DNA of 64,000 bases from Bradyrhizobium sp. SZCCHNS1050 (GTDB taxonomy: Bacteria; Pseudomonadota; Alphaproteobacteria; Rhizobiales; Xanthobacteraceae), in contig NZ_JAUETR010000002.1 of assembly GCF_032484785.1 (NCBI RefSeq), forward strand, positions 1,591,290-1,655,289, written 5' to 3'. Numbering within the stretch: the first letter of the stretch is position 1; every line of letters begins with the position of its first letter. Under the pieces are notes generated by a model that did no database searches, was not told the origin of the DNA, and worked only from the letters and a program-made list of their open reading frames with translations. Shown here piece after piece: positions 31,356-41,689 of this stretch. The position numbers were made by a program, and so were the translations under genes.

Positions 31356-32057
31356 TCAGGCTGCGCGGTCGAGATGGGCGACGAGGCCGGCGAACAGGCC
31401 ACGGCCGTCGGTGCAGCCCATGATGTCCTCGACGTGATTCTCGGGATGCGGCATCATGCCGAGCACATTCCCGTTCTCGTTGACGATGCCGGCGATGGAA
31501 TGCGCAGCGCCATTGATGTTGCTGATGTCGCCGACCTCGCCATCGGCTGAGCAGTAACGATAGAGCACGCGCCCATCGCCATTGAGCCGCTTCAAGGTCT
31601 CCTCGTCGGCCGCATAATTGCCCTCGCCGTGAGCGACCGGCACGCGGATGACCTGACCCGCATTGTAGCCGCGGGTGAACGGCGAATCGGAGCGCTCGAC
31701 CCGCAGATGCACGTCCTTGCAGATGAACTTCAGCTTATCGTTGCGCATCAGCACGCCCGGCAGCAGGCCGGACTCGCACAGGATCTGGAAGCCGTTGCAG
31801 ACGCCGAGCACCAAGCCGCCCTTGGCGGCGAAATCGCGTACTGCGTCCATCACCGGGGCCCGTGCCGCGATCGCGCCACAGCGCAGATAGTCGCCATAGG
31901 AGAAGCCGCCGGGCACCACGACGAGGTCGGTGCCCTTCGGCAGCGACGTCTCGGCGTGCCAGACCATCGCAGGCTCATGGCCGGAGATCATGCGCAGCGC
32001 GCGGGCCATGTCGCGTTCGCGGTTGATGCCGGGGAAGACGAGGACGGCGGATTTCAT
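31356..32057 (-). CDS. purQ: Phosphoribosylformylglycinamidine synthase, glutaminase subunit
   Basis: The 233-residue class I glutamine amidotransferase supplies ammonia to PurL. The nucleophile is in [10 protein letters not shown] (about residue 87), the His-Glu pair in MPHPENH (about 205), and the opening is [12 protein letters not shown]. The ATG at 32057 is 4 bp after the stop of a 59-residue ORF that separates it from purS. Length is normal. Confidence 0.96.
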
Positions 32058-32061
32058 GATG

Positions 32062-32241
32062 CTACGTGTTTGCCCGATAATGATCCCCTCGCAGCTTCGC
32101 GAGAGTGTGTGAGTCCGACGAGAGCTCTCTGTTCAACGCTCGCGCACCAGCAAGCAGCTCATCGACAGAATGTTCGACACGGACCTGATCACGCGGGATT
32201 TCCAGCAGAAGCTCGTAGATCTCGCGGTCGATCACGGCCAT
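32062..32241 (-). CDS. Small ORF of 59 residues between purS and purQ
   Basis: This short gene starts [20 protein letters not shown] and ends [10 protein letters not shown]. The ATG (32241) is 3 bp after the purS stop (TAG-GCA-ATG) and its stop (32062-32064) is 4 bp before purQ, so it is packed tightly and likely translationally coupled. The sequence is charged and helical, with no membrane segment. I do not recognise it. In gene order it replaces the direct purS-purQ contact; a link to the PurLQS complex is conceivable but unproven. Confidence 0.65.
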
Positions 32242-32244
32242 TGC

Positions 32245-32487
32245 CTACCCCAGCAACTCCACCCGGTAATTCTCGATCACCGTATTCGCCAGCAGCTTGT
32301 CGGCGGCCGCCTTCAGGGCGGCCTCCGCCTTGGCCTTGTCGGCACCGGCGAGCTCGATGTCGAACACCTTGCCCTGCCGCACGCTGGCGACGCCGTCGAC
32401 GCCGAGCGATTTCAGGGCGCCCTCGATCGCCTTGCCCTGCGGATCGAGGATGCCGGATTTCAGCGTCACCGTGACACGCGCTTTCAC
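32245..32487 (-). CDS. purS: Phosphoribosylformylglycinamidine synthase subunit PurS
   Basis: The 80-residue protein bridges PurQ and PurL in the FGAM synthase complex. It matches the family throughout: ARVTVTLKSGILDPQGKAIE, SLGVDGVASVRQGKVFDIEL and the end LLANTVIENYRVELLG. The GTG at 32487 is preceded by AGGGAACAAGAC and gives the right length; the ATG at 32610 lies inside purC. Confidence 0.95.
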   Translation of the reverse strand: MKARVTVTLKSGILDPQGKAIEGALKSLGVDGVASVRQGKVFDIELAGADKAKAEAALKAAADKLLANTVIENYRVELLG

Positions 32488-32500
32488 GTCTTGTTCCCTT

Positions 32501-33268
32501 TTAGCTCTTGACCAGGACCGGGCCGGAGCCCGCCGGGCGCTCGTTCTCGATGAGGATGCCGAGCCGCTTGGCGACCTCGGTATAGGCCTCCAGAAGGCCG
32601 CCAAGATCACGACGGAAGCGGTCCTTGTCGAGCTTCTCGTTCGACTTGATGTCCCACAGCCGGCAGGAATCGGGGGAAATCTCGTCGGCGACGATGATGC
32701 GCATCATCTCGTTCTCGAACAGCCGGCCGCATTCCATCTTGAAGTCGACCAGGCGGATGCCGATGCCGAGGAAAAGCCCGGTCAGGAAGTCGTTGACGCG
32801 AATGGCGAGCGCCATGATGTCGTCGATTTCCTGGGGCGTCGCCCAGCCGAACGCAGTGATGTGCTCCTCCGACACCATGGGGTCGTTGAGCTGGTCGTTC
32901 TTGTAATAGAATTCGATGATCGAACGCGGCAGCTGGGTGCCTTCCTCGATGCCGAGGCGCTGCGACAGCGAGCCCGCCGCCACATTGCGGACGACGACCT
33001 CGAGCGGCACGATCTCGACCTCGCGAATCAACTGCTCGCGCATGTTGAGCCGGCGGATGAAGTGAGTCGGAACCCCGATGTCGTTGAGGTGCTGAAACAG
33101 GTACTCCGAGATCCGGTTGTTGAGGACGCCCTTGCCTTCAATCACCTGGTGCTTCTTGGCATTGAAGGCGGTGGCGTCGTCCTTGAAGTGCTGGATCAGG
33201 GTGCCCGGCTCGGGGCCTTCATACAGGACCTTGGCCTTGCCTTCATAAATGCGACGCCGACGGCTCAT
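32501..33268 (-). CDS. purC: SAICAR synthase
   Basis: The 255-residue enzyme condenses CAIR with aspartate using ATP in purine synthesis. Motifs: [13 protein letters not shown] (residue 5), [26 protein letters not shown] (about 96), and VDFKMECGR (about 177). Start 33268 ([13 protein letters not shown]) is the usual family start; an in-frame ATG 30 bp earlier (33298) is possible. It is the first gene of purC-purS-orf59-purQ, with 13 bp before purS. Confidence 0.96.
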
Positions 33269-33578
33269 TGGGATGTACCGTGTTTTGTTGAAATCCATGA
33301 AATGGTGGGCTCCGGATGACTTTGGACAGGACCACGACGGAGCTGCCGCGAGGGCCCGGACGGACGGAAACAGAACAAGAACCGGGCCTGTGGGAAACCT
33401 ATCTCATTGGTGTCCCGAGCACAATCGATCCGGGCCTCGGGAGCGGAGTTTTACCGCCCTTCCCTGCGGCCTCGTACCCGTTGTATTGGCAAGATGTTCC
33501 AATTATTTAGGCGTGCGGCCACCGCCCCGCAACCGCCTGCGCGGTTAACCCTCTTCGGCAACACTGGAAGTTCCGACC

Positions 33579-33976: not shown

Positions 33977-34465
33977 TTACTCTTCCTTGAAGCCGTATTC
34001 CGGCACGTTGCCGCTGGCGCCGTAATATTTGTAAGGCAGGAACTTGCCCGACATCGTGATCTTGACGCGGTCTCCCTTGGCATTGGGCAGGCGCTCCATC
34101 ACCATGTCGAAATCGATCGCCGACATGATGCCGTCGCCGAATTCCTCCTGGATCAGCTCCTTCCACGCCGGGCCGTTGATCATCACGAGTTCGTAGAAGC
34201 GGTAGATCAAGGGATCGGTCGGGGGCATCTGCACGCCCTCGCCGCGCATCGGCGTCTCGTTCAGCATCGCGATCTCGGATTTGGACAGGCCGAACAGCTC
34301 GCCGGCGTTCGCCGCCTGCGGCTTGGTCAGCTTCATCTGGCCGAGAACGGCGCCGACGATCAGCACCTCGGAATAGCCGCCGATCTGTTCGCAGATGTAC
34401 TTCCAGCTCCATCCTTTCTCGCGCTTGATATCGAGCAGCTTCTCGGTGAGGTCGGATCGCTTCAT
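33977..34465 (-). CDS. cynS: Cyanate hydratase (cyanase)
   Basis: The 162-residue decamer-forming enzyme converts cyanate and bicarbonate to ammonia and carbon dioxide. The three catalytic residues are present: Arg89 and Glu92 in IYRFYELV and Ser115 in FGDGIMSAIDF. The N-terminal helix-turn-helix-like domain is KYICEQIGGYSEVLIVGAVL. Start 34465 (MKRSDLTEKLLDIK); the frame continuing to 35149 is antisense noise over the ATPase gene. It is the last of seven minus-strand genes. Confidence 0.95.
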   Translation of the reverse strand: MKRSDLTEKLLDIKREKGWSWKYICEQIGGYSEVLIVGAVLGQMKLTKPQAANAGELFGLSKSEIAMLNETPMRGEGVQMPPTDPLIYRFYELVMINGPAWKELIQEEFGDGIMSAIDFDMVMERLPNAKGDRVKITMSGKFLPYKYYGASGNVPEYGFKEE

Positions 34466-34515
34466 GCTTGGTCTCCCTTGAAAGTCTTCGTTGATGGGTT
34501 TCTTCCGGCTGGGCG

Positions 34516-35418
34516 TCAGCGGGCGATCGCCTGCGGCGCGTCGTTCTCGACCGGGTTGGACGCGACGATCGTCGGCTCGCTGCGCCCGATCTTCACCACC
34601 GGCACCTTGCGCGGGTCGTAATCGGGCGTCTCGGCGGTGAAGGTCTTGCTGCGGCTGACCAGGAAATCGATGATGTGGTTGCGCAGCGCGTAGTACAGCG
34701 GATGGCGATGCAGGTCGCCGCGCAGCCGGTCCTTCGGCAGCGGGTTCTCGACGATCTCCGCGAGCACCGCGCCGGGTCCGTTGGTCATCAGCACGATCTT
34801 GTCGGCGAGATAGATCGCTTCGTCCACGTCGTGGGTGATCATGAACACGGTCTGCCCGGTCTCGACGCAGATGCGGCGGACCTCGTCCTGCAGGGTGCCG
34901 CGCGTCAGCGCATCGAGCGCGGAGAACGGCTCGTCCATCAGCATGATCTTCGGCGTGATCGAGAGCGCGCGGGCAATCCCGACGCGCTGCTTCATGCCGC
35001 CGGACAGCTCCGACGGCCGCCTGTGCTCGGAGCCGGACAGGCCGACGAGCTCGATGTATTTCAGCGCATGCGCCTTGACCTTGGCGCGATCCCATTTGCG
35101 CCATTTCGACGAGACGGCATAGGCGACGTTGCCGAGCACCGTCCGCCACGGCAGCAGCGCATGGCTCTGGAAGATGACCGCGCGGTCGAGACTCGGACCT
35201 TCGATGGCCTGGCCGTCGACGATGACGGCGCCTTCGCTCGGCACGTCGAGGCCGGCAAGAACATTCAGCACCGTGGTCTTGCCGCAGCCGGAATGCCCGA
35301 TCACGCAGACGAACTCGCCGCGCGCCATCGCGAGCCAGAGATTCTCGAAGATCGTCGTGCTGCGCGCCCCATCATAGCGCTTGGCGATCCCTTCGATGGA
35401 GATGAACTTGTCGGTCAT
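34516..35418 (-). CDS. ABC transporter ATP-binding protein (nitrate/cyanate/sulfonate type)
   Basis: The 300-residue ATPase has Walker A GHSGCGKTTVLN (about residue 40), the signature LSGGMKQRVGIARAL (about 138), and Walker B IMLMDEPFSALD (about 160). It belongs to the NrtD/SsuB/TauB group and pairs with the permease at 35577 and the solute-binding protein at 36628. A C-terminal tail of about 45 residues follows the domain. A palindrome separates it from the permease gene. Confidence 0.92.
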   Translation of the reverse strand: MTDKFISIEGIAKRYDGARSTTIFENLWLAMARGEFVCVIGHSGCGKTTVLNVLAGLDVPSEGAVIVDGQAIEGPSLDRAVIFQSHALLPWRTVLGNVAYAVSSKWRKWDRAKVKAHALKYIELVGLSGSEHRRPSELSGGMKQRVGIARALSITPKIMLMDEPFSALDALTRGTLQDEVRRICVETGQTVFMITHDVDEAIYLADKIVLMTNGPGAVLAEIVENPLPKDRLRGDLHRHPLYYALRNHIIDFLVSRSKTFTAETPDYDPRKVPVVKIGRSEPTIVASNPVENDAPQAIAR

Positions 35419-35430
35419 AGGAAGGTCTTT

Positions 35431-35540
35431 CCGTTCCCTCCCCCCTTGTGGGGGAGGGTCAGGGAGGGGGGTCCCCCACGAAGACTCGCGCGTGGGGCAC
35501 CCCCACCCCTAACCCCTCCCCGCAAGGGGGAGGGGAACGG
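35431..35540. repeat. Palindrome inside the cyanate operon (ATPase-permease junction)
   Basis: CCGTTCCCTCCCCCTTG at the left pairs with CAAGGGGGAGGGGAACGG at the right; inner arms TCCCCCACG/CGTGGGG also pair. The transcript could form a long stem here. Confidence 0.8.
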
Positions 35541-35576
35541 AGTTGCGCACCTTGCAGCCGTTCGCCTGATCATGCC

Positions 35577-36416
35577 CTACTCCGGAAACGTCACGAGCCG
35601 CGACACGCGGGCCAGGATCTGATCCAGCACCATGCCGACCAGGCCGATCAGCAGGATCGCGATGATCACGTTGGTGATCGAGAGGTTGTTCCACTCGTTC
35701 CAGACGAAGTAGCCGATGCCGGTGCCCCCGACGAGCATCTCGGCGGCGACGATGACGAGCCAGGCGATGCCGATCGAGATCCGCATGCCGGTGAGGATCG
35801 TCGGCGCCGCAGCCGGCAGGATGACCGTGAAGGCCCGGCGGAAATTCCCGACCTCGAGCGTGCGGGCGACGTTGATCCATTCCTTGCGCACGCTGGCGAC
35901 GCCGAAGGCGGTGTTGATGAGCATCGGCCACACCGAGCAGATGAAGATCACGAAGATCGCCGACAGGCTGGAATCCTTGATGGTGTAGAGCGCGAGCGGC
36001 ATCCAGGCGAGCGGCGAGATCGGTTTGAGAATCTGGATGAACGGATCGAGCGCCTTGCTCATCAAGGGCGACATGCCGATCAGGAAGCCGAGCGGGATCG
36101 CGACCGCGACTGCGATCAAATAGCCGAGCATGACCCGCCCGAGCGAGAAGGCGAGCTGGATGCCGAGCCCCTTGTCGTTCGGACCATTGTCGTAGAACGG
36201 CCGCCGCAGATGCTCCCACAGCTTGGCACCGACATCGAGCGGCCCGGGCATCGCCGACTTGCCCTGCGTGGCCGTCATGCCCATCAGCTTGGCGTATTCC
36301 GGGCTCATGTTGGCCGCGGCGCCCGTGCTGCGCGTCGCGATATGCCAGGCGCCGAGGAACACGGCGACCAGCACGATGGAAACCACGGCGGCGCGGAGGC
36401 GAAGAGAGGCGGTCAT
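35577..36416 (-). CDS. ABC transporter permease (nitrate/cyanate/sulfonate type)
   Basis: The 279-residue inner-membrane permease has a signal-like first segment (AAVVSIVLVAVFLGAWHIA) and about five more hydrophobic segments. The EAA loop region is TLEVGNFRRAFTVILPAAAP (about residue 195), contacting the ATPase. It lies between palindromes on both sides within the operon. Confidence 0.9.
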   Translation of the reverse strand: MTASLRLRAAVVSIVLVAVFLGAWHIATRSTGAAANMSPEYAKLMGMTATQGKSAMPGPLDVGAKLWEHLRRPFYDNGPNDKGLGIQLAFSLGRVMLGYLIAVAVAIPLGFLIGMSPLMSKALDPFIQILKPISPLAWMPLALYTIKDSSLSAIFVIFICSVWPMLINTAFGVASVRKEWINVARTLEVGNFRRAFTVILPAAAPTILTGMRISIGIAWLVIVAAEMLVGGTGIGYFVWNEWNNLSITNVIIAILLIGLVGMVLDQILARVSRLVTFPE

Positions 36417-36432
36417 GCCGGCGCTCCACTCA

Positions 36433-36562
36433 CGGTGTCGTCCCTGCGAACGCAGGGACCCATAACCACCGTCGGCAGTTGGTGGAAACGATTGTCGCTA
36501 CCGCCCCCGCCCCAAGACAGGTCACGGCGTATGGGTCCCCGCGTTCGCGGGGACGACACCGG
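36433..36562. repeat. Palindrome inside the cyanate operon (permease-binding protein junction)
   Basis: CGGTGTCGTCCCTGCGAACG pairs with CGTTCGCGGGGACGACACCG; inner arms GACCCATA and TATGGGTC also pair. Confidence 0.85.
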
Positions 36563-36627
36563 TGGTGTGGTTGGCGGCGTGTTCATCACCATGGGTGGGA
36601 TCAGCAGCGTCGCGCCCATTCCCCCCA

Positions 36628-38013
36628 TCACGACGCCTTCTTGATCTTGAAGCTGGCGACGTAGTCGTCCGGCTTGGTCGGATCGAACGGCTTGCCCATC
36701 ACCGAGAACGATTTGTAGGAGTCCTTCGGCGGCGTCAGGCCCATGTCGGTCATGACCTTGCGGGTGTCGGTGGCGAGATAGATCTGCTCCGCGACCGCCT
36801 TGTAGTCGACGTCGCCCTTGATCTGGCCCCAGCGCTTCATCTGCGTCAGCATCCACACCGCGAAGGACTGCCACGGGAACGGATCGAAATCGACGCGCTT
36901 CGGATCGGTCTTCACGCTGCCGAGGCCATCGGCGTAGGTGCCGGTCAAGACCTGCTCCATGACGGTCACCGGCGCATTGATGTAATTCGCCGGAGCGATC
37001 GCCTCCGCGATCTGCTTGCGGTTCTCAGCCTTCGACGCGTACGCGGTGGCATCGACGATGGCGCGGGTGAGAGCGGCAAAGCTGTTCGGCGCCGTCGTGA
37101 TGAACTCGCGGCTCGCCGCGAAGCTGCAGCAGGGGTGACCGTCCCAGATCTCCTTCGACAGGATGTGCAGGAAACCGACGCCGTCAAAGATCGCGCGCTG
37201 GCAGATGTTGTCGGGCGCGAGGAAGCCGTCGATGTTGTCGGCGCGCAGGTTCGCGACCATCTCCGGCGGCGGCACCGAGCGCAGTTGCACGTCGGTGTCG
37301 GGATCGATGCCGTGCTCGGCGAGATAATAGCGCAGGAGATAGTTGTGCATCGAATAGTCGAACGGAATGGCGAGCTTCATGCCCTTCCAGTCCTTCGGAT
37401 TGCGCTTGTCCTTGTGCTTCATCGCAAGCGTAATGCCCTGCCCGTTGATGTTCTCGATCGCGGGCACGGTGAACGGGATCGGCTGTGCACCGAGGCCGAG
37501 CGAGATCGCGATCGGCATCGGCGCCAGCATGTGCGAGGCGTCGTATTCCTTGTTGATGGTCTTGTCGCGGATGACGGCCCAGCCGGCGGTCTTGACGACC
37601 TCGACGTTCAGCCCGGCCTTGGCATAGAAGCCGAGCGGCGCCGCCATGATGATCGGGGTCGCGCAGGTGATCGGGATGAAGCCGACCTTGAGATCCTTCT
37701 TCTCGGGCGCGCCCGCTTCGGCGAACGCCTCGGTCGCGGTCTTCAGCGGGAAGAACTGGGACACTGCGGCGAGCGCGGTGGCGGCGCCGACCGACTTCAG
37801 AAACGCGCGGCGGGTGGCAGCTTGCGGAAACACCGCGCGCAGCACGGCTGACGCGACCACGTTCTCGTAGCGCTTCTCGGTGGAGTCCGCCACGGGCTCG
37901 CAGCGCAGCGCCAGCGCGGCGTGCTCATGTTCGGCCGGGCTGCGATGCTGGCCGCAGATACAACCGGCATTCACGCGTGAATCGGCATCGAACGGATCAT
38001 CGAAAATCGACAT
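36628..38013 (-). CDS. CmpA/NrtA-family ABC substrate-binding protein with N-terminal Cys extension
   Basis: The 461-residue protein binds the imported solute in the periplasm. A Tat signal (TRRAFLKSVGAATALAAV, from about residue 71) precedes the mature family sequence KVGFIPITCATPIIMAAPLG. Ahead of the Tat motif is an unusual 65-residue cytoplasmic extension with GCICGQH (Cys18, Cys20) and RCEP. I recall similar CxCGxH extensions in other members, so it is probably not a start error. The family binds nitrate, bicarbonate or cyanate; context favours cyanate or a related anion. Confidence 0.88.
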   Translation of the reverse strand: MSIFDDPFDADSRVNAGCICGQHRSPAEHEHAALALRCEPVADSTEKRYENVVASAVLRAVFPQAATRRAFLKSVGAATALAAVSQFFPLKTATEAFAEAGAPEKKDLKVGFIPITCATPIIMAAPLGFYAKAGLNVEVVKTAGWAVIRDKTINKEYDASHMLAPMPIAISLGLGAQPIPFTVPAIENINGQGITLAMKHKDKRNPKDWKGMKLAIPFDYSMHNYLLRYYLAEHGIDPDTDVQLRSVPPPEMVANLRADNIDGFLAPDNICQRAIFDGVGFLHILSKEIWDGHPCCSFAASREFITTAPNSFAALTRAIVDATAYASKAENRKQIAEAIAPANYINAPVTVMEQVLTGTYADGLGSVKTDPKRVDFDPFPWQSFAVWMLTQMKRWGQIKGDVDYKAVAEQIYLATDTRKVMTDMGLTPPKDSYKSFSVMGKPFDPTKPDDYVASFKIKKAS

Positions 38014-38109
38014 GTGCTGCGCCCCTTTGTCACACCTGCGCTGTCAGCGCCTTCGAACTGCTCGTCCGGCCGCATTTTTCAGCGGCCGGACGTGCTTAAC
38101 ATGCAGCTT

Positions 38110-38985
38110 CTATGCCGCCTTGCTGGTCATCGCCGGCATCGGAAGTCCTTCCTCGATCGGCAGCGACGGGTCGCGCGACCACTCGTTCCACGAGCCGAAG
38201 TACATCCGCACATCCTTCACGCCGGCGTTCTTCAGCGCCAGGAAGGTGTTCGAGGCCCGTGCGCCCTTGAAGCAGTAAAGATAAACCGGCGTGTCGACCG
38301 TGATGCCGACGGTGGCGCATTCGGCGAGGATCTCGTCCTGCGACTTGAAGCGCGGGCCTTCGGCGGTCGGCTTCATCATGCGGTACCATTCGAGCCAGAC
38401 GGCGCCGGGGATGCGGCCTTTGCGCGGACAGAAATCCTTGCCGTAGGGCGAGGAGGAATCGCCGATCCACTCATCGACATCGCGGACGTCGAGGATCGCG
38501 ATAGCGGGATTGCCAACCGCCGCCAGCATCGCCTTGGCGTCGATCAGGATGCTGCCCGCCTCCGGCACGATGGCGAACGAGGCCTTGGCCGGCGACGGCA
38601 CGTCGGTCGTCACCGGCATGCCGGCGGCCACCCAGGCATCGTAGCCGCCATGCAGCACCTTGACCTTGGGATAGCCGAGCATCGTGAGCAGGAAATAGCC
38701 GCGGCACGACTGGCCGAAGCCGGAGTTCATCGACTGTTCGTAGACGACGGCGGTCTCGGCGCCCGAAAGGCCGGCGGCGCCGAACGCGTCCGCAAACTTC
38801 GTCTTCAATTCCTCCATGCCTTCCGGTGTGGACGTCGCGAGATAGGTGAATATCTCGTGGACGTTGACGGCGCCGGGAAGATGTCCCGCGGCGTAGGCAT
38901 CGGGATTGCGGGTGTCGATCACGACACACGGCTCGGTCTTGATGAACTCAGCGAGTTCGCCGGCTGTAATCAGAACGTCCGTCAT
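38110..38985 (-). CDS. Sulfurtransferase with two rhodanese domains
   Basis: The 291-residue protein has an N-terminal rhodanese domain without an active cysteine loop (VVIDTRNPDAYAAGHLPGAV, about 21-40) and a C-terminal domain with the catalytic loop YCFKGARAS (Cys238). The loop differs from CGTGVTA or CGSGVTA of thiosulfate and mercaptopyruvate enzymes, so the donor may differ. It moves sulfane sulfur to a thiophilic acceptor such as cyanide. Its place between an ABC importer and a flavoprotein in a cyanase operon suggests desulfuration of an N-C-S compound. Confidence 0.88.
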   Translation of the reverse strand: MTDVLITAGELAEFIKTEPCVVIDTRNPDAYAAGHLPGAVNVHEIFTYLATSTPEGMEELKTKFADAFGAAGLSGAETAVVYEQSMNSGFGQSCRGYFLLTMLGYPKVKVLHGGYDAWVAAGMPVTTDVPSPAKASFAIVPEAGSILIDAKAMLAAVGNPAIAILDVRDVDEWIGDSSSPYGKDFCPRKGRIPGAVWLEWYRMMKPTAEGPRFKSQDEILAECATVGITVDTPVYLYCFKGARASNTFLALKNAGVKDVRMYFGSWNEWSRDPSLPIEEGLPMPAMTSKAA

Positions 38986-39034
38986 GGCAGGCCTCTCCTG
39001 GTTGGGATTTGTTGGTTTGCCGTTCTCGCCGGCG

Positions 39035-40171
39035 TCAGCCGTCGGCGAGCATCTTGCGGAGCTGCTTGGTCGCGGGAGTCACGATCGCGACGAAATAGGC
39101 CTCGCGCAGGCGACGTTCGGCGCGATTGCCCTTGAGGTAGCCGCGGGCTCCGCAATGGAGCATCGCGGCATGAGCGGCAGCGACGCTGGCCTCGCCGGCA
39201 CGCAGGCGCAGCGCCACGACCTTGCGCCAATAGGTCTCGTCGGGGTTGAACGGATCGCTGGCGAGTTCAGCCGTCTCCTTCGCGAGTTCATCGGCGAGCG
39301 CGCTGAAATCGACCGGCTGCTGCGGCAGATAGCGGTTGACGTGGCCGAGCGGCGCCTCGACCTCCTGCATGATCTTGATGCAGTCCTTGATCAGGCCGAG
39401 CGCCATGCCGGCCTGCAACATGATGAATCCGGCACGGATCTTCTTGACGAAGGGACCGGCGGGATCGGCCAGGATCAGTTCGTCCGGCACGAACAGGTCG
39501 CGAAACTGGATGCCGTAGGTGCCGGTGCCGTCCATCGCCAGGAACGGCTGGCATGGCTGCAGGGTCACCGCCGGATCGGCACAGTCGGCGATGAACATCA
39601 CGATCTCGCCGGGCGCGTCCTCACGCTCGAAGATCGTACCGAACATGTGGTCCGGCCCGAGGTTCGAGACCCAGGGCAGCACGCCGCGCACGACGTAGCC
39701 GCCCTCGACCTTGCGACCCCTGAGCTTGAGCTTCTCGATGCCGAAGAAGCTCTTCATCGGATTGGACAAGCCGGTGCCACCGAGCAACCGGCCGCTGGCG
39801 GCGTCGTCGAGAAGACGGCCGACGAGCGCCTTGTTGGGCGAGTTGGCGATGTACCAGACCAGCGTGTTCTGGCACCACGCCATGAAGGCAGAGGCGCCGC
39901 AGACCTCACCGATCGCGCCGATGGTGTCGATCGCGCAGTTGAGATCCGCCGCGCCATTTTCCGGCACGTGGCTGCTCCACGCGCCGACCTCGCCGAAGCG
40001 GCGGAGCACGTCGGCCGGGTACACCGTCCCGGCGTCGATGCCAGCGGCCAGCGGCGCGAGTTCCTTGCGCGCGATCGCCGTGACCTGCTCCACGGTCGAC
40101 GGTATGGGCATGACGCCCGCGCCATCGACCGCCAGATGCTGTCCGAGTGAACCCGAGACTACTGAGTTCAT
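39035..40171 (-). CDS. Acyl-CoA dehydrogenase-like flavoprotein
   Basis: The 378-residue protein has the ACAD fold: an N-terminal helical domain (about 25-130), a beta domain (GGTGLSNPMKSFFGIE, FEREDAPGEIVMFIAD) and a C-terminal helical bundle. Similarity is with the distant members that include DszC/SfnB-type monooxygenases. The usual catalytic Glu is not obvious, so fatty acyl-CoA is unlikely to be the substrate. It sits between the OsmC and rhodanese genes in the cyanate operon and may oxidise the imported compound. Confidence 0.75.
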   Translation of the reverse strand: MNSVVSGSLGQHLAVDGAGVMPIPSTVEQVTAIARKELAPLAAGIDAGTVYPADVLRRFGEVGAWSSHVPENGAADLNCAIDTIGAIGEVCGASAFMAWCQNTLVWYIANSPNKALVGRLLDDAASGRLLGGTGLSNPMKSFFGIEKLKLRGRKVEGGYVVRGVLPWVSNLGPDHMFGTIFEREDAPGEIVMFIADCADPAVTLQPCQPFLAMDGTGTYGIQFRDLFVPDELILADPAGPFVKKIRAGFIMLQAGMALGLIKDCIKIMQEVEAPLGHVNRYLPQQPVDFSALADELAKETAELASDPFNPDETYWRKVVALRLRAGEASVAAAHAAMLHCGARGYLKGNRAERRLREAYFVAIVTPATKQLRKMLADG

Positions 40172-40205
40172 GACGTCCTCCGCTACGCCGACCTCGAGGG
40201 CCGCC

Positions 40206-40748
40206 TCAGATCCCGACCTCGAGATTGACCGGACGCGTGAAGGTGTTGGCGACCGGCGACCACTTCTTGACGTGGTCGATCAGCGCCTTGACCTCCTCCT
40301 GCGGAATGCCCTCGCACTCCATGTCGACCTTGACGCGGACGTCGGTGAAGCCGACCGGCTTCTCGCTGACGTCGCCGGTGCCCCAGACTGCGGTGATGTT
40401 GAGATCGCCCTCGAGCTCCAGCTCGAGCTTGTTGACGATCCAGCCGCGATGCACCGCATTGGCATGCAGGCCGACGGCCAGGCAGGAGCCGAGCGCGGCG
40501 AGCGAGGCTTCCGACGGATTTGGCGCGGTGTCGTCACCGAGCAGCCCCGGCGGCTCGTCGACGATGTAGGGCGCGAGGTTGCGGATGTAGTTGGCGTGAC
40601 GAAACTTGCCCTCGGCGACGGTCTTGCACTTCAGGGTCTTGATGACCTTGGGGTTGGCCTTGCCGTTGACGATGAGCTGTTCAAGCCCGTTCTTGTCGAT
40701 GGGTGCGAGGCAGCCCGTCAGCGCCGTCTTCTGAACCACAGCGGTCAT
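40206..40748 (-). CDS. OsmC family protein
   Basis: The 180-residue protein has the two reactive cysteines of the OsmC/Ohr fold, in GSCLAVGLHANAVHRG (about residue 88) and VDMECEGIPQEEV (about 142). Such proteins reduce organic hydroperoxides or bind thiol-reactive groups. It is the first gene of the seven-gene cyanate operon; a TetR-type operator lies 23 bp upstream. A role in handling a reactive sulfur or peroxide by-product is inference. Confidence 0.85.
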   Translation of the reverse strand: MTAVVQKTALTGCLAPIDKNGLEQLIVNGKANPKVIKTLKCKTVAEGKFRHANYIRNLAPYIVDEPPGLLGDDTAPNPSEASLAALGSCLAVGLHANAVHRGWIVNKLELELEGDLNITAVWGTGDVSEKPVGFTDVRVKVDMECEGIPQEEVKALIDHVKKWSPVANTFTRPVNLEVGI

Positions 40749-40770
40749 CTCATTTCTCTCCCTGGGATGA

Positions 40771-40792
40771 GGATACCGAACGGTCTGTATCC
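40771..40792. promoter_or_regulatory. Candidate TetR operator
   Basis: GGATACCGAACGGTCTGTATCC contains the perfect core ACCGAACGGT inverted arms (ACCG/CGGT) within GGATAC/GTATCC outer arms. It lies in the leader of the cyanate operon and between it and the divergent TetR gene. Confidence 0.55.
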
Positions 40793-41005
40793 TGCACGAA
40801 GCGTGCCAGAGAGGCCGAAAATCAAAAGCCGGAGTGATCCTCGCGGCTTACGCGGTCATCGCGGCAAGTGGCGAGCCGCTGCGTCCCCTCCGCTGCCCAA
40901 GCGCAGTGCAGAATGCCGCCTTCGGAGATCAAATTGAGCGCAACGCTGCCTCGAGCACATCAGCAGTCTTGCTGACTCACGCGCACAGCGATTAAGCTTG
41001 CACGC

Positions 41006-41689
41006 ATGGCAAAGTCAGTTGCGGGCAAACAAACCGGCAAGAAGCAGGCGATCGCGAGGACGATCTCGGCTGGCGATGACGAATCCGCGCGCGGCCGTCT
41101 GCTCGGCGCCGCCACGCGGCTGTTCTGCAAGAACGGCATCAATGCCACCGGGATCGATGCGATCATCAGCGAGGCCGGCACCGCGAAGACCACGCTCTAC
41201 AAGCTGTTCGGATCGAAGACCGCGCTGGTCACCGCCGTGCTGGAAAGCGAAGGCAAGCAGTGGCGCGAATGGTTCATCGCGGAAATGGAGAGCGGCGGCG
41301 GTGACGCCGAGACCAAGCTGGCACGCATCTTTCCGGCGCTGAAGAGCTGGTTCGGCGAGGAGCGCTTCTACGGCTGCCCCTTCATCAATGCGGTCGGCGA
41401 GCACGACAAGGACCAGAAGCAGTTTCGCACCATCGCAATGCGCCACAAGAAAGTGGTGCTGGCGCATATCGAGAAGCTCGCCCGTGAGATGGGCGCTGCC
41501 GAGCCGGAGAGCTTCTCGCATCAGCTTGCACTGCTGATCGACGGCGCGATCGTGGCGGCGATGGTGTCGCGCAATCCCGAGGTCGCGGACACCGCCGGGC
41601 TGGCGGCGAAGGCGCTGATCGAGCCGGCGAAGCTGAAGGCGGGCCAGCGCAACAGCAAGGCGGCGGGCCCGCAGCTCGCTGCGGTCTGA
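41006..41689 (+). CDS. TetR family transcriptional regulator
   Basis: The 227-residue regulator has an N-terminal TetR helix-turn-helix: LLGAATRLFCKNGINATGID, IISEAGTAKTTLYKLFGSKT (about residues 33-72). The C-terminal ligand domain contains RFYGCPFINAVGEHD (about 125), with a cysteine that might sense an electrophile. It is divergent from the OsmC-to-cynS operon, 257 bp away, and is the natural candidate to control it. Confidence 0.88.
   Translation: MAKSVAGKQTGKKQAIARTISAGDDESARGRLLGAATRLFCKNGINATGIDAIISEAGTAKTTLYKLFGSKTALVTAVLESEGKQWREWFIAEMESGGGDAETKLARIFPALKSWFGEERFYGCPFINAVGEHDKDQKQFRTIAMRHKKVVLAHIEKLAREMGAAEPESFSHQLALLIDGAIVAAMVSRNPEVADTAGLAAKALIEPAKLKAGQRNSKAAGPQLAAV

What the first reader, a model, noticed from the sequence alone, without database searches (positions are those of the whole stretch)
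33977..41689. Cyanate operon combined with rhodanese, ACAD-like flavoprotein and OsmC
Seven same-strand genes (OsmC, acyl-CoA dehydrogenase-like, sulfurtransferase, CmpA/NrtA binding protein, permease, ATPase, CynS) face a TetR gene. Plain cyanate use needs only transport and CynS. Adding a sulfurtransferase with an unusual loop (CFKGARAS), a flavoprotein of the DszC/SfnB-like branch and an OsmC protein suggests import of an N-C-S compound (thiocyanate or an isothiocyanate-type molecule), oxidation or sulfur removal, and release of cyanate to CynS. The family roles are known; the pathway is inference.
Basis: partly seen in the sequence, partly recalled or inferred. Interest (0 to 1): 0.72.

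Follow-up and report, generated by a model that had tools for sequence, protein, structure and literature searches.

The report
Probable thiocyanate-to-cyanate gene cluster
A soil bacterium related to root-nodule bacteria carries a gene set, shared by several distant bacterial groups, that probably imports a small sulfur- and nitrogen-containing ion such as thiocyanate, strips off the sulfur and feeds the cyanate left over to a known enzyme; its substrate and chemistry are still untested.

Summary
In detail: seven same-strand genes (OsmC, ACAD-like flavoprotein, two-domain rhodanese, CmpA/NrtA-type binding protein, permease, ATPase, CynS) face a TetR gene at 33977-41689. OsmC-ACAD is an almost constant pair. 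CynS accompanies it in most Bradyrhizobium loci, in 7 of 13 genomes found outside the window's family (6 also with rhodanese), and on plasmids of Acetobacter, Caballeronia and Marinobacter, with two kinds of ABC transporter and divergent cyanases. Other partners handle sulfur or electrons. New here: CynA-like binding proteins fall into two types. In a 149-genome family sample the derived type (Asn for Pro at 269) occurs in 26 of 31 module genomes lacking the second, dedicated transporter, 0 of 8 having it, and 2 of 41 without the module (some genomes re-sorted after looking). This suggests that the module has its own cyanate-like substrate, best guess thiocyanate. Not supported: an 'unusual' rhodanese loop (it is ordinary) and a DszC/SfnB branch. 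Ten literature searches found no paper on the module among the listings seen. Substrate and reaction are inferred, untested.

The parts
33977..34465 (-). CynS, cyanase (162 aa from ATG; longer ORFs read further upstream); the only cynS match in this genome
   Evidence: NF002773 and TIGR00673 above cut-off; one match in G000
34516..35418 (-). ABC transporter ATPase, nitrate/cyanate type
   Evidence: TIGR01184 288.4 bits, just under the cut-off 291.8
35577..36416 (-). ABC transporter permease, nitrate/cyanate type
   Evidence: TIGR01183 ntrB above cut-off
36628..38013 (-). Substrate-binding protein, CmpA/NrtA/CynA type; belongs to the module-associated clade with Asn at residue 269 (motif APDNICQ)
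   Evidence: NMT1_2; NrtA/CmpA relatives in the PDB; tree; residue survey
38110..38985 (-). Two-domain rhodanese, active-site loop CFKGAR in the second domain
   Evidence: Pfam Rhodanese, two stretches; loop invariant in 10 of 10 aligned relatives
39035..40171 (-). ACAD-fold flavoprotein; the place of the usual catalytic Glu reads Thr, by ungapped extension
   Evidence: Acyl-CoA_dh_N; alignment of 18 relatives; PDB profile search
40206..40748 (-). OsmC-like protein with one invariant Cys (C89); the second OsmC Cys position is an invariant Ser
   Evidence: alignment of 12; alignment to 9wo1
40770..40793 (.). Putative TetR operator AGGATACCGAACGGTCTGTATCCT (core ACCGNNCGGT)
   Evidence: place checked; exact core in 74 of 106 TetR-divergent gaps, shuffled expectation 0.009 per locus
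41006..41689 (+). TetR-family regulator, divergent
   Evidence: a TetR relative in 78 of 80 genome-contig loci

Best explanation
The cluster is a TetR-controlled assimilation module for a small anionic N-C-S compound, most likely thiocyanate. The ABC transporter, with its altered CynA-like binding protein, imports it. The ACAD-fold flavoprotein, acting as an oxidoreductase that needs outside electrons rather than as an acyl-CoA dehydrogenase, and the one-cysteine OsmC protein oxidise the sulfur and take it up as a persulfide. A plausible chemistry is flavin oxygenation to a hypothiocyanite-like species, attack by the OsmC thiol, and hydrolysis to cyanate plus OsmC persulfide. Rhodanese passes the sulfane sulfur on, and CynS turns cyanate into ammonia and CO2. 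Shown: gene content, conservation, recurrent CynS and sulfur partners, conserved operator-like site, binding-protein association. Inferred: substrate, every catalytic step, electron donor.
For: OsmC-ACAD-Rhod with CynS in several gene orders and lineages: Bradyrhizobium, four further families of the order, another order of the class (L144), and CynS with OsmC-ACAD but without rhodanese on Marinobacter, Acetobacter and Caballeronia plasmids. Eight Bradyrhizobium loci have Rhod followed directly by CynS without the transporter (L071, L072, L073, L078, L084, L102, L103, L108). Linked cyanases are not one clade. In the family sample 35 of 38 module genomes have CynS against 70 of 111 others (Fisher p 0.0004), and 12 of those 35 have it within 10 kb. 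Sulfur partners: rhodanese, Blh-type persulfide dioxygenase, family 2A encapsulin plus cysteine desulfurase (L145 only). Electron partners: ferredoxin-reductase-like flavoprotein in 8 and rubredoxin or rubredoxin-reductase matches in 10 of 40 fetched loci. N-type binding protein: 26 of 31, 0 of 8 and 2 of 41; the second transporter is absent genome-wide from those 31 and present in those 8. The genome's only NHase-alpha match is nitrile hydratase, not thiocyanate hydrolase.
Against: No substrate or activity was tested. Among 33 fetched loci outside the genome contigs set with enough flank, 21 lack CynS nearby. In L143 and L148 the CynS lies in a neighbouring separate cyn operon, not in the module's run. 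Five of the 31 genomes lack the Asn type (G059, G068, G105, G122 have Pro only; G132 has Ser and Pro), and two genomes without the module have it (G013, G082); five of 70 Bradyrhizobium binding-protein hits in the scan loci are Pro. The in-module binding proteins of L194, L195 and L197 keep Pro. This window has no reductase gene in the cluster; relatives (38-46% identical) lie elsewhere in the genome. The second transporter's binding protein is nearest SsuA, which fits a sulfonate as well. The ACAD model is weak (pLDDT 65).
Confidence: 0.42

Rival explanations
1. Same module logic, different substrate: a sulfonate-like or other organosulfur compound whose breakdown gives cyanate or an N-C-S fragment, with CynS clearing the cyanate.
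For: The second transporter's binding protein is nearest SsuA, below cut-off. A sister ACAD family sits in AhpD/CMD-ACAD-ABC operons, and a distant relative sits on the S. elongatus plasmid that carries srpI, cysK and epsC. Many loci lack CynS.
Against: The repeated company of CynS and the tie to a modified cyanate-type binding protein point to a small cyanate-like anion.
Confidence: 0.25
2. Cyanide handling: the flavoprotein oxidises cyanide to cyanate and rhodanese traps cyanide as thiocyanate.
For: Rhodanese and CynS are classic cyanide-related enzymes (recalled). A cyanide monooxygenase that gives cyanate was proposed but not demonstrated (PMC11049912, passage seen).
Against: HCN should need no ABC importer (general knowledge), yet the module tracks with transporters and binding-protein type. 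Persulfide dioxygenase and encapsulated cysteine desulfurase are better explained by released sulfur.
Confidence: 0.1
3. Two adjacent, functionally separate operons: cyanate use, and a TetR-controlled thiol or oxidative-stress unit, merged in this lineage.
For: In 42 of 80 genome-contig loci a reverse-strand sigma-54 regulator match is present, in the loci examined between the two halves, and the same regulator faces 11 of 17 cyn operons of module-free genomes. In the window the two halves abut.
Against: CynS joins OsmC-ACAD in lineages with other gene orders and other regulators, and 8 Bradyrhizobium loci have Rhod-CynS without the transporter.
Confidence: 0.15

Closest known systems
Cyanate operon (cynABD-cynS)
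   Same: CmpA/NrtA-type ABC transporter followed by cyanase
   Different: OsmC, ACAD and rhodanese added under a TetR gene; binding protein of a distinct clade
Cyanate pathway of thiocyanate oxidation with thiocyanate dehydrogenase TcDH (Thioalkalivibrio, Thiohalobacter; PMC5328954 passages seen, PMC6504805 start of abstract seen)
   Same: Proposed products cyanate and sulfur at the sulfane or elemental level
   Different: TcDH is a copper enzyme (recalled) of sulfur-oxidising bacteria; here an ACAD-fold flavoprotein with OsmC and rhodanese
Carbonyl sulfide pathway (thiocyanate hydrolase; PMC5328954 passages seen)
   Same: Would use the same substrate
   Different: Releases COS and ammonia; the hydrolase gamma subunit was not found in this genome
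SfnB/DszC sulfur-acquisition flavoproteins with AhpD/CMD partners (role recalled)
   Same: ACAD fold, thiol-peroxidase-like partner, ABC transporter, sulfur context
   Different: P0006 does not hit SfnB or DszC models at 1e-3; only distant family members hit them, weakly
OsmC/Ohr peroxidases
   Same: Fold, first Cys, Arg and Glu conserved (roles recalled)
   Different: Second Cys replaced by Ser, so not the usual two-Cys peroxidase

Membership tests
Cyanate operon cynABDS | Cyanase above curated cut-off with an adjacent CmpA/NrtA-type ABC transporter | tested here: met
Cyanate operon cynABDS | Binding protein of the type usual in genomes without the ACAD module (Pro at 269; a feature defined here, not a published one) | tested here: not met
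   window has Asn, in the other clade
Acyl-CoA dehydrogenase | ACAD fold by sequence | tested here: met
   PF02771 above cut-off; profile hits to SCAD and butyryl-CoA dehydrogenases
Acyl-CoA dehydrogenase | C-terminal catalytic Glu of the SCAD/MCAD type (recalled) | tested here: not met
   The place reads Thr-Pro in 18 of 18 relatives, by ungapped extension past the end of the profile match; a base at another place, as in some ACADs, is not excluded
SfnB / DszC | Match to TIGR04022 (SfnB) or NF043015 (DszC) above cut-off | tested here: not met
   No hit for P0006 at 1e-3; relative L150 scores 46.6 and 37 bits, cut-offs 430.9 and 850
OsmC/Ohr two-Cys peroxidase | Two redox cysteines | tested here: not met
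   One invariant Cys; second position Ser in 12 of 12
Rhodanese | Rhodanese domains with a six-residue Cys loop, mostly ending in Arg, Thr or Ser | tested here: met
   loop definition from PMC8533005 passages
Thiocyanate to cyanate pathway | Thiocyanate-dependent formation of cyanate | not testable with these tools
   needs enzymes or growth tests
Thiocyanate to cyanate pathway | Thiocyanate dehydrogenase gene in this genome | not tested
   no TcDH sequence or model was used as a query
COS pathway | Thiocyanate hydrolase gamma subunit (TIGR03887 above 291.45) | tested here: not met
   The only NHase-alpha match in G000 scores 176.8 there and 317.4 as nitrile hydratase alpha

The most novel reading that the evidence does not exclude
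A flavin- and persulfide-based route from thiocyanate to cyanate, separate from copper TcDH and from thiocyanate hydrolase, spread by operon shuffling and plasmids through Alpha-, Beta- and Gammaproteobacteria. In the Hyphomicrobiales a cyanate transporter was retuned for thiocyanate by a binding-protein change marked by Pro to Asn at 269, so that one permease can serve two pseudohalides.
Probability: 0.35. Interest if true: 0.82.

Novelty: new variant of a known kind. Interest (0 to 1): 0.64.

Why it matters
Several heterotrophic genera can grow with thiocyanate as nitrogen source (PMC5328954, passage seen), among them Methylobacterium thiocyanatum, on thiocyanate or cyanate (title of Wood et al. 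1998, seen in reference lists). [quoted passage not shown] If the reading is right, this module is a third, flavin-based one. It gives a concrete candidate gene set, a cheap binding-protein test (Asn against Pro type) and named carriers, with possible use in treating mining and coking waste and for soil nitrogen and sulfur cycling.

Tried and rejected
The AlphaFold model of P0006 (alignment of 23 close relatives) is weak (mean pLDDT 65.3). Foldseek gives ordinary ACADs at TM about 0.69 and, lower, PigA, which does not settle dehydrogenase against monooxygenase. An accession look-up failed (not in the collections). The class-level search gave, besides this genome, only one already known.

Literature: ten searches found no paper on this module among the papers listed. 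Terms: cyanase/rhodanese/OsmC/acyl-CoA dehydrogenase/thiocyanate (0 papers), thiocyanate/cyanate/cynS/Bradyrhizobium (32: 3), thiocyanate degradation/cyanase/rhodanese/flavoprotein (33: 4), a wider thiocyanate set (50: 3), thiocyanate/OsmC/cyanate (59: 0), thiocyanate/acyl-CoA dehydrogenase/cyanase (60: 0), OsmC/cyanase (71: 2), cynS/acyl-CoA dehydrogenase/sulfur/ABC transporter/cyanate (72: 27, 20 listed), thiocyanate/sole nitrogen source/monooxygenase set (85: 11), encapsulin/rhodanese/thiocyanate (86: 169, 12 listed). The library holds open-licence papers only. Passages were seen of PMC12316311, PMC5596200, PMC5328954, PMC8561711, PMC11049912, PMC13021748 and PMC8533005; all other papers only as listings with the start of the abstract. 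No whole paper was read.

Rejected: the 'unusual loop' (ordinary); a DszC/SfnB branch; a strict rule that every module genome without the second transporter has the Asn type (five of 31 do not). My written prediction held in direction, but groups were re-sorted afterwards: G067 was moved because its module lacks the second transporter (later confirmed genome-wide), and G001 and G004 were moved to module-positive after their split or contig-end modules were seen. Before that last move the counts were Asn in 25 of 37 module genomes (with or without the second transporter) and 3 of 43 others. Residue 269 was found post hoc on 58 rows; the wider family reading includes many of those rows. Of the 81 genomes matched, G111 (45% identical only) was left out, as were second hits of 45-50% identity in six genomes. 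Relatedness of genomes was not corrected for in any Fisher test.
Full report
WHAT IS THERE. The window encodes, on the minus strand, OsmC (40206-40748), an ACAD-like protein (39035-40171), a two-domain rhodanese (38110-38985), a CmpA/NrtA-type binding protein (36628-38013), a permease (35577-36416), an ATPase (34516-35418) and cyanase (33977-34465), with a TetR gene divergent at 41006-41689. Gaps are 34, 49, 96, 211, 158 and 50 bases. It is the only cynS match in this genome. The next relative of the ACAD in the genome is 27% identical.

CONSERVATION IN THE GENUS. The single genome-contig scan kept the best 80 of 167 confirmed stretches. In these 80, OsmC is beside ACAD in 79, rhodanese follows in 80, a TetR relative is held in 78; of 68 loci with enough flank, 63 have CynS within 10 kb (layouts). 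Eight loci (L071, L072, L073, L078, L084, L102, L103, L108) have rhodanese followed directly by CynS with no transporter between. In 42 of 80 a reverse-strand sigma-54 regulator with PAS domains is matched; in the loci examined it lies between rhodanese and the binding protein (L047, L054, L092, L099, L112). The same regulator faces 11 of 17 cyn operons in module-free genomes. So the window's single run looks like two neighbouring units that have closed up.

CONSERVATION BEYOND. Matches with E at or below 1e-20 were found in 51 of 149 family genomes; 38 of these reach 1e-80 and are taken as orthologs. In the phylum sample 16 of 398 matched at 1e-40, in the order sample 16 of 347 at 1e-50, in the class sample 2 of 337; these samples overlap and each includes this genome. 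I fetched wide flanks for 40 loci before the tally: 26 of the 38 family orthologs, all 9 non-family hits and one further same-genus hit, and the 4 new hits. OsmC is beside ACAD in 37 of 40, rhodanese in 26, CynS within 10 kb in 12; of 33 with enough flank CynS is present in 12 and absent in 21. Outside the family 7 of 13 have CynS, 6 of them also rhodanese. In five it is in the module's own run: OsmC-ACAD-FdR-Rhod-SBP-Perm-ATP-CynS (L170), ATP2-SBP2-Perm2-OsmC-ACAD-Rhod-DSBA-FdR-CynS (L171), ABC2-OsmC-ACAD-Rhod-FdR-CynS (L172), SBP2-Perm2-OsmC-ACAD-Rhod-CynS (L173) and ABC2-OsmC-ACAD-Rhod-CynS-FdR (L144). In L143 and L148 it is in a neighbouring cyn operon. Inside the family L126 reads OsmC-ACAD-Rhod-ABC2-CynS. 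Among plasmid records 35 match; I opened eight. CynS sits with OsmC-ACAD, without rhodanese, on Marinobacter shengliensis pMAD49a, Acetobacter ascendens pAP1447-1 and Caballeronia sp. SBC2 pSBC2-1. It was not found in the Pseudosulfitobacter, Rhodobacteraceae SC52, Methylocystis and Moraxella stretches. The linked cyanases are not one clade: 6 changes of label on the tree, at least 2 forced by well-supported branches (many weak forks).

IS THE CYNS LINK MORE THAN CHANCE. In the family sample 35 of 38 ortholog genomes have CynS against 70 of 111 others (p 0.0004; the three without are 72, 79 and 90% complete assemblies). Read by eye from the coordinates, 12 of those 35 have CynS within 10 kb, where about 0.14 is expected. 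Relatedness of genomes is not corrected for.

PARTNERS. Other partners handle sulfur or electrons. A Blh-type persulfide dioxygenase follows in 4 of the 40 loci. A ferredoxin-reductase-like flavoprotein is near in 8 and a rubredoxin or rubredoxin-NADH:rubredoxin reductase fusion in 10 of 40. A DsbA-fold, HCCA-isomerase-like protein is near in 4 of 40 and in Pseudosulfitobacter. In L145 alone the ABC2-OsmC-ACAD operon abuts a family 2A encapsulin and its cysteine desulfurase cargo, both above cut-off. A sister ACAD family (about 30% identity) is preceded by an AhpD/CMD-type protein in 10 of 11 loci and accompanied by the same kind of ABC transporter, and a more distant one lies on the S. elongatus plasmid near srpI, cysK and epsC. 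So an ACAD with a thiol protein and an anion or sulfonate importer is a recurrent design, and OsmC and AhpD-type proteins seem to replace one another.

THE PROTEINS. P0006 matches true acyl-CoA dehydrogenases best, at 59.6 bits and 105 bits as a profile of 18 relatives. Where SCAD-type enzymes carry the catalytic Glu (recalled), 18 of 18 relatives read Thr-Pro after an invariant RR-x-RE; the profile match ends just before, so this is an ungapped extension. SfnB and DszC models hit only distant relatives, weakly. OsmC keeps C89, R50 and E65 in 12 of 12 and has Ser where the second OsmC Cys would be. Rhodanese has a CFKGAR loop, like RDL2 CAKGVR. The gap between TetR and the divergent OsmC or ATPase carries ACCGNNCGGT exactly in 74 of 106 loci; shuffles give 0.009 per locus. 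Of the rest, 25 have one mismatch and 7 two, for which no control was run.

THE BINDING PROTEIN. A tree of 27 rows suggested two clades. I wrote a prediction, using cyn operons already fetched from genomes with and without the module, and built a tree of 58 rows. One clade of 25 holds none of the 17 rows from genomes scored as module-free; the other, of 33, holds all 17. One site separates them best: residue 269 is Pro in 33 of 33 and Asn in 24 of 25, Ser in one. Pro is also present in all 17 binding proteins compared of the second and sister transporters, and in the in-module proteins of L194, L195 and L197. A whole-genome search in the family sample and reading of the residue in 80 genomes gave Asn in 26 of 31 genomes with the module but without the second transporter, 0 of 8 with it, and 2 of 41 without the module. 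A genome-wide check found the second transporter's binding protein (60-67% identical) in those 8 and in none of the 31; ten of the 41 genomes checked hold only the sister type at 48-52%. G016, G037, G071 and the order-level genome G160 carry both Asn and Pro types. Within genera: the one g28 genome without the second transporter is Asn while three with it are Pro; three g7 genomes with the module are Asn while a module-free one is Pro. Against: genus g14 is Asn with and without the module, and two Bradyrhizobium with the module are Pro (G105, G122). My reading is that the Asn type serves the module's own substrate through the cyanate permease. The group assignments were partly re-sorted after looking (see Tried and rejected).

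MECHANISM. A cyanate-like anion that needs sulfur removal and yields cyanate is, most simply, thiocyanate. Electron-donor genes in many relatives' clusters argue for a reductively activated flavin and O2; the OsmC thiol could trap the oxidised sulfur as a persulfide, which rhodanese or a persulfide dioxygenase would handle. All of this is inference. The two described pathways for primary thiocyanate degradation are the COS and the TcDH cyanate pathway (PMC5328954, passages). The genome's only NHase-alpha match is nitrile hydratase; TcDH was not searched for.

VERDICT. It is a conserved metabolic module of unproven function rather than a curiosity of one genome.

Noticed in passing
window 35430-35541 and 36433-36561: Two long imperfect palindromes (arms of 51 and 32 nt, 82% and 94% complementary) lie in the ATPase-permease and permease-SBP gaps; they look like dispersed intergenic repeats inside an operon.
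   Followed up: no
window 31356-33298: PurQ-, PurS- and PurC-like ORFs (named from recall) flank the cyanase end; some other Bradyrhizobium loci keep the same neighbours.
   Followed up: no
L145 3465-9640: An ABC2-OsmC-ACAD operon runs into a family 2A encapsulin, its cysteine desulfurase cargo and a hexapeptide-repeat protein, probably serine acetyltransferase.
   Followed up: partly
L196 (S. elongatus PCC 7942 plasmid 1): A DUF4242-ACAD-ABC gene run (ACAD 28% identical) in the plasmid region with srpI, cysK and epsC.
   Followed up: no
L159-L169: Sister ACAD family with an AhpD/CMD-type protein upstream in 10 of 11 loci and an ABC transporter; function unknown.
   Followed up: partly
L112, L143: Both carry two binding proteins of different clades around one permease/ATPase set.
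   Followed up: yes
L306: In G001 the ACAD of an OsmC-ACAD-rubredoxin reductase-PDO cluster is matched in two separate pieces.
   Followed up: no
plasmid collection: Records labelled Neisseria gonorrhoeae of about 2.17 Mb stand among plasmids and encode a 38% identical ACAD; not fetched.
   Followed up: no
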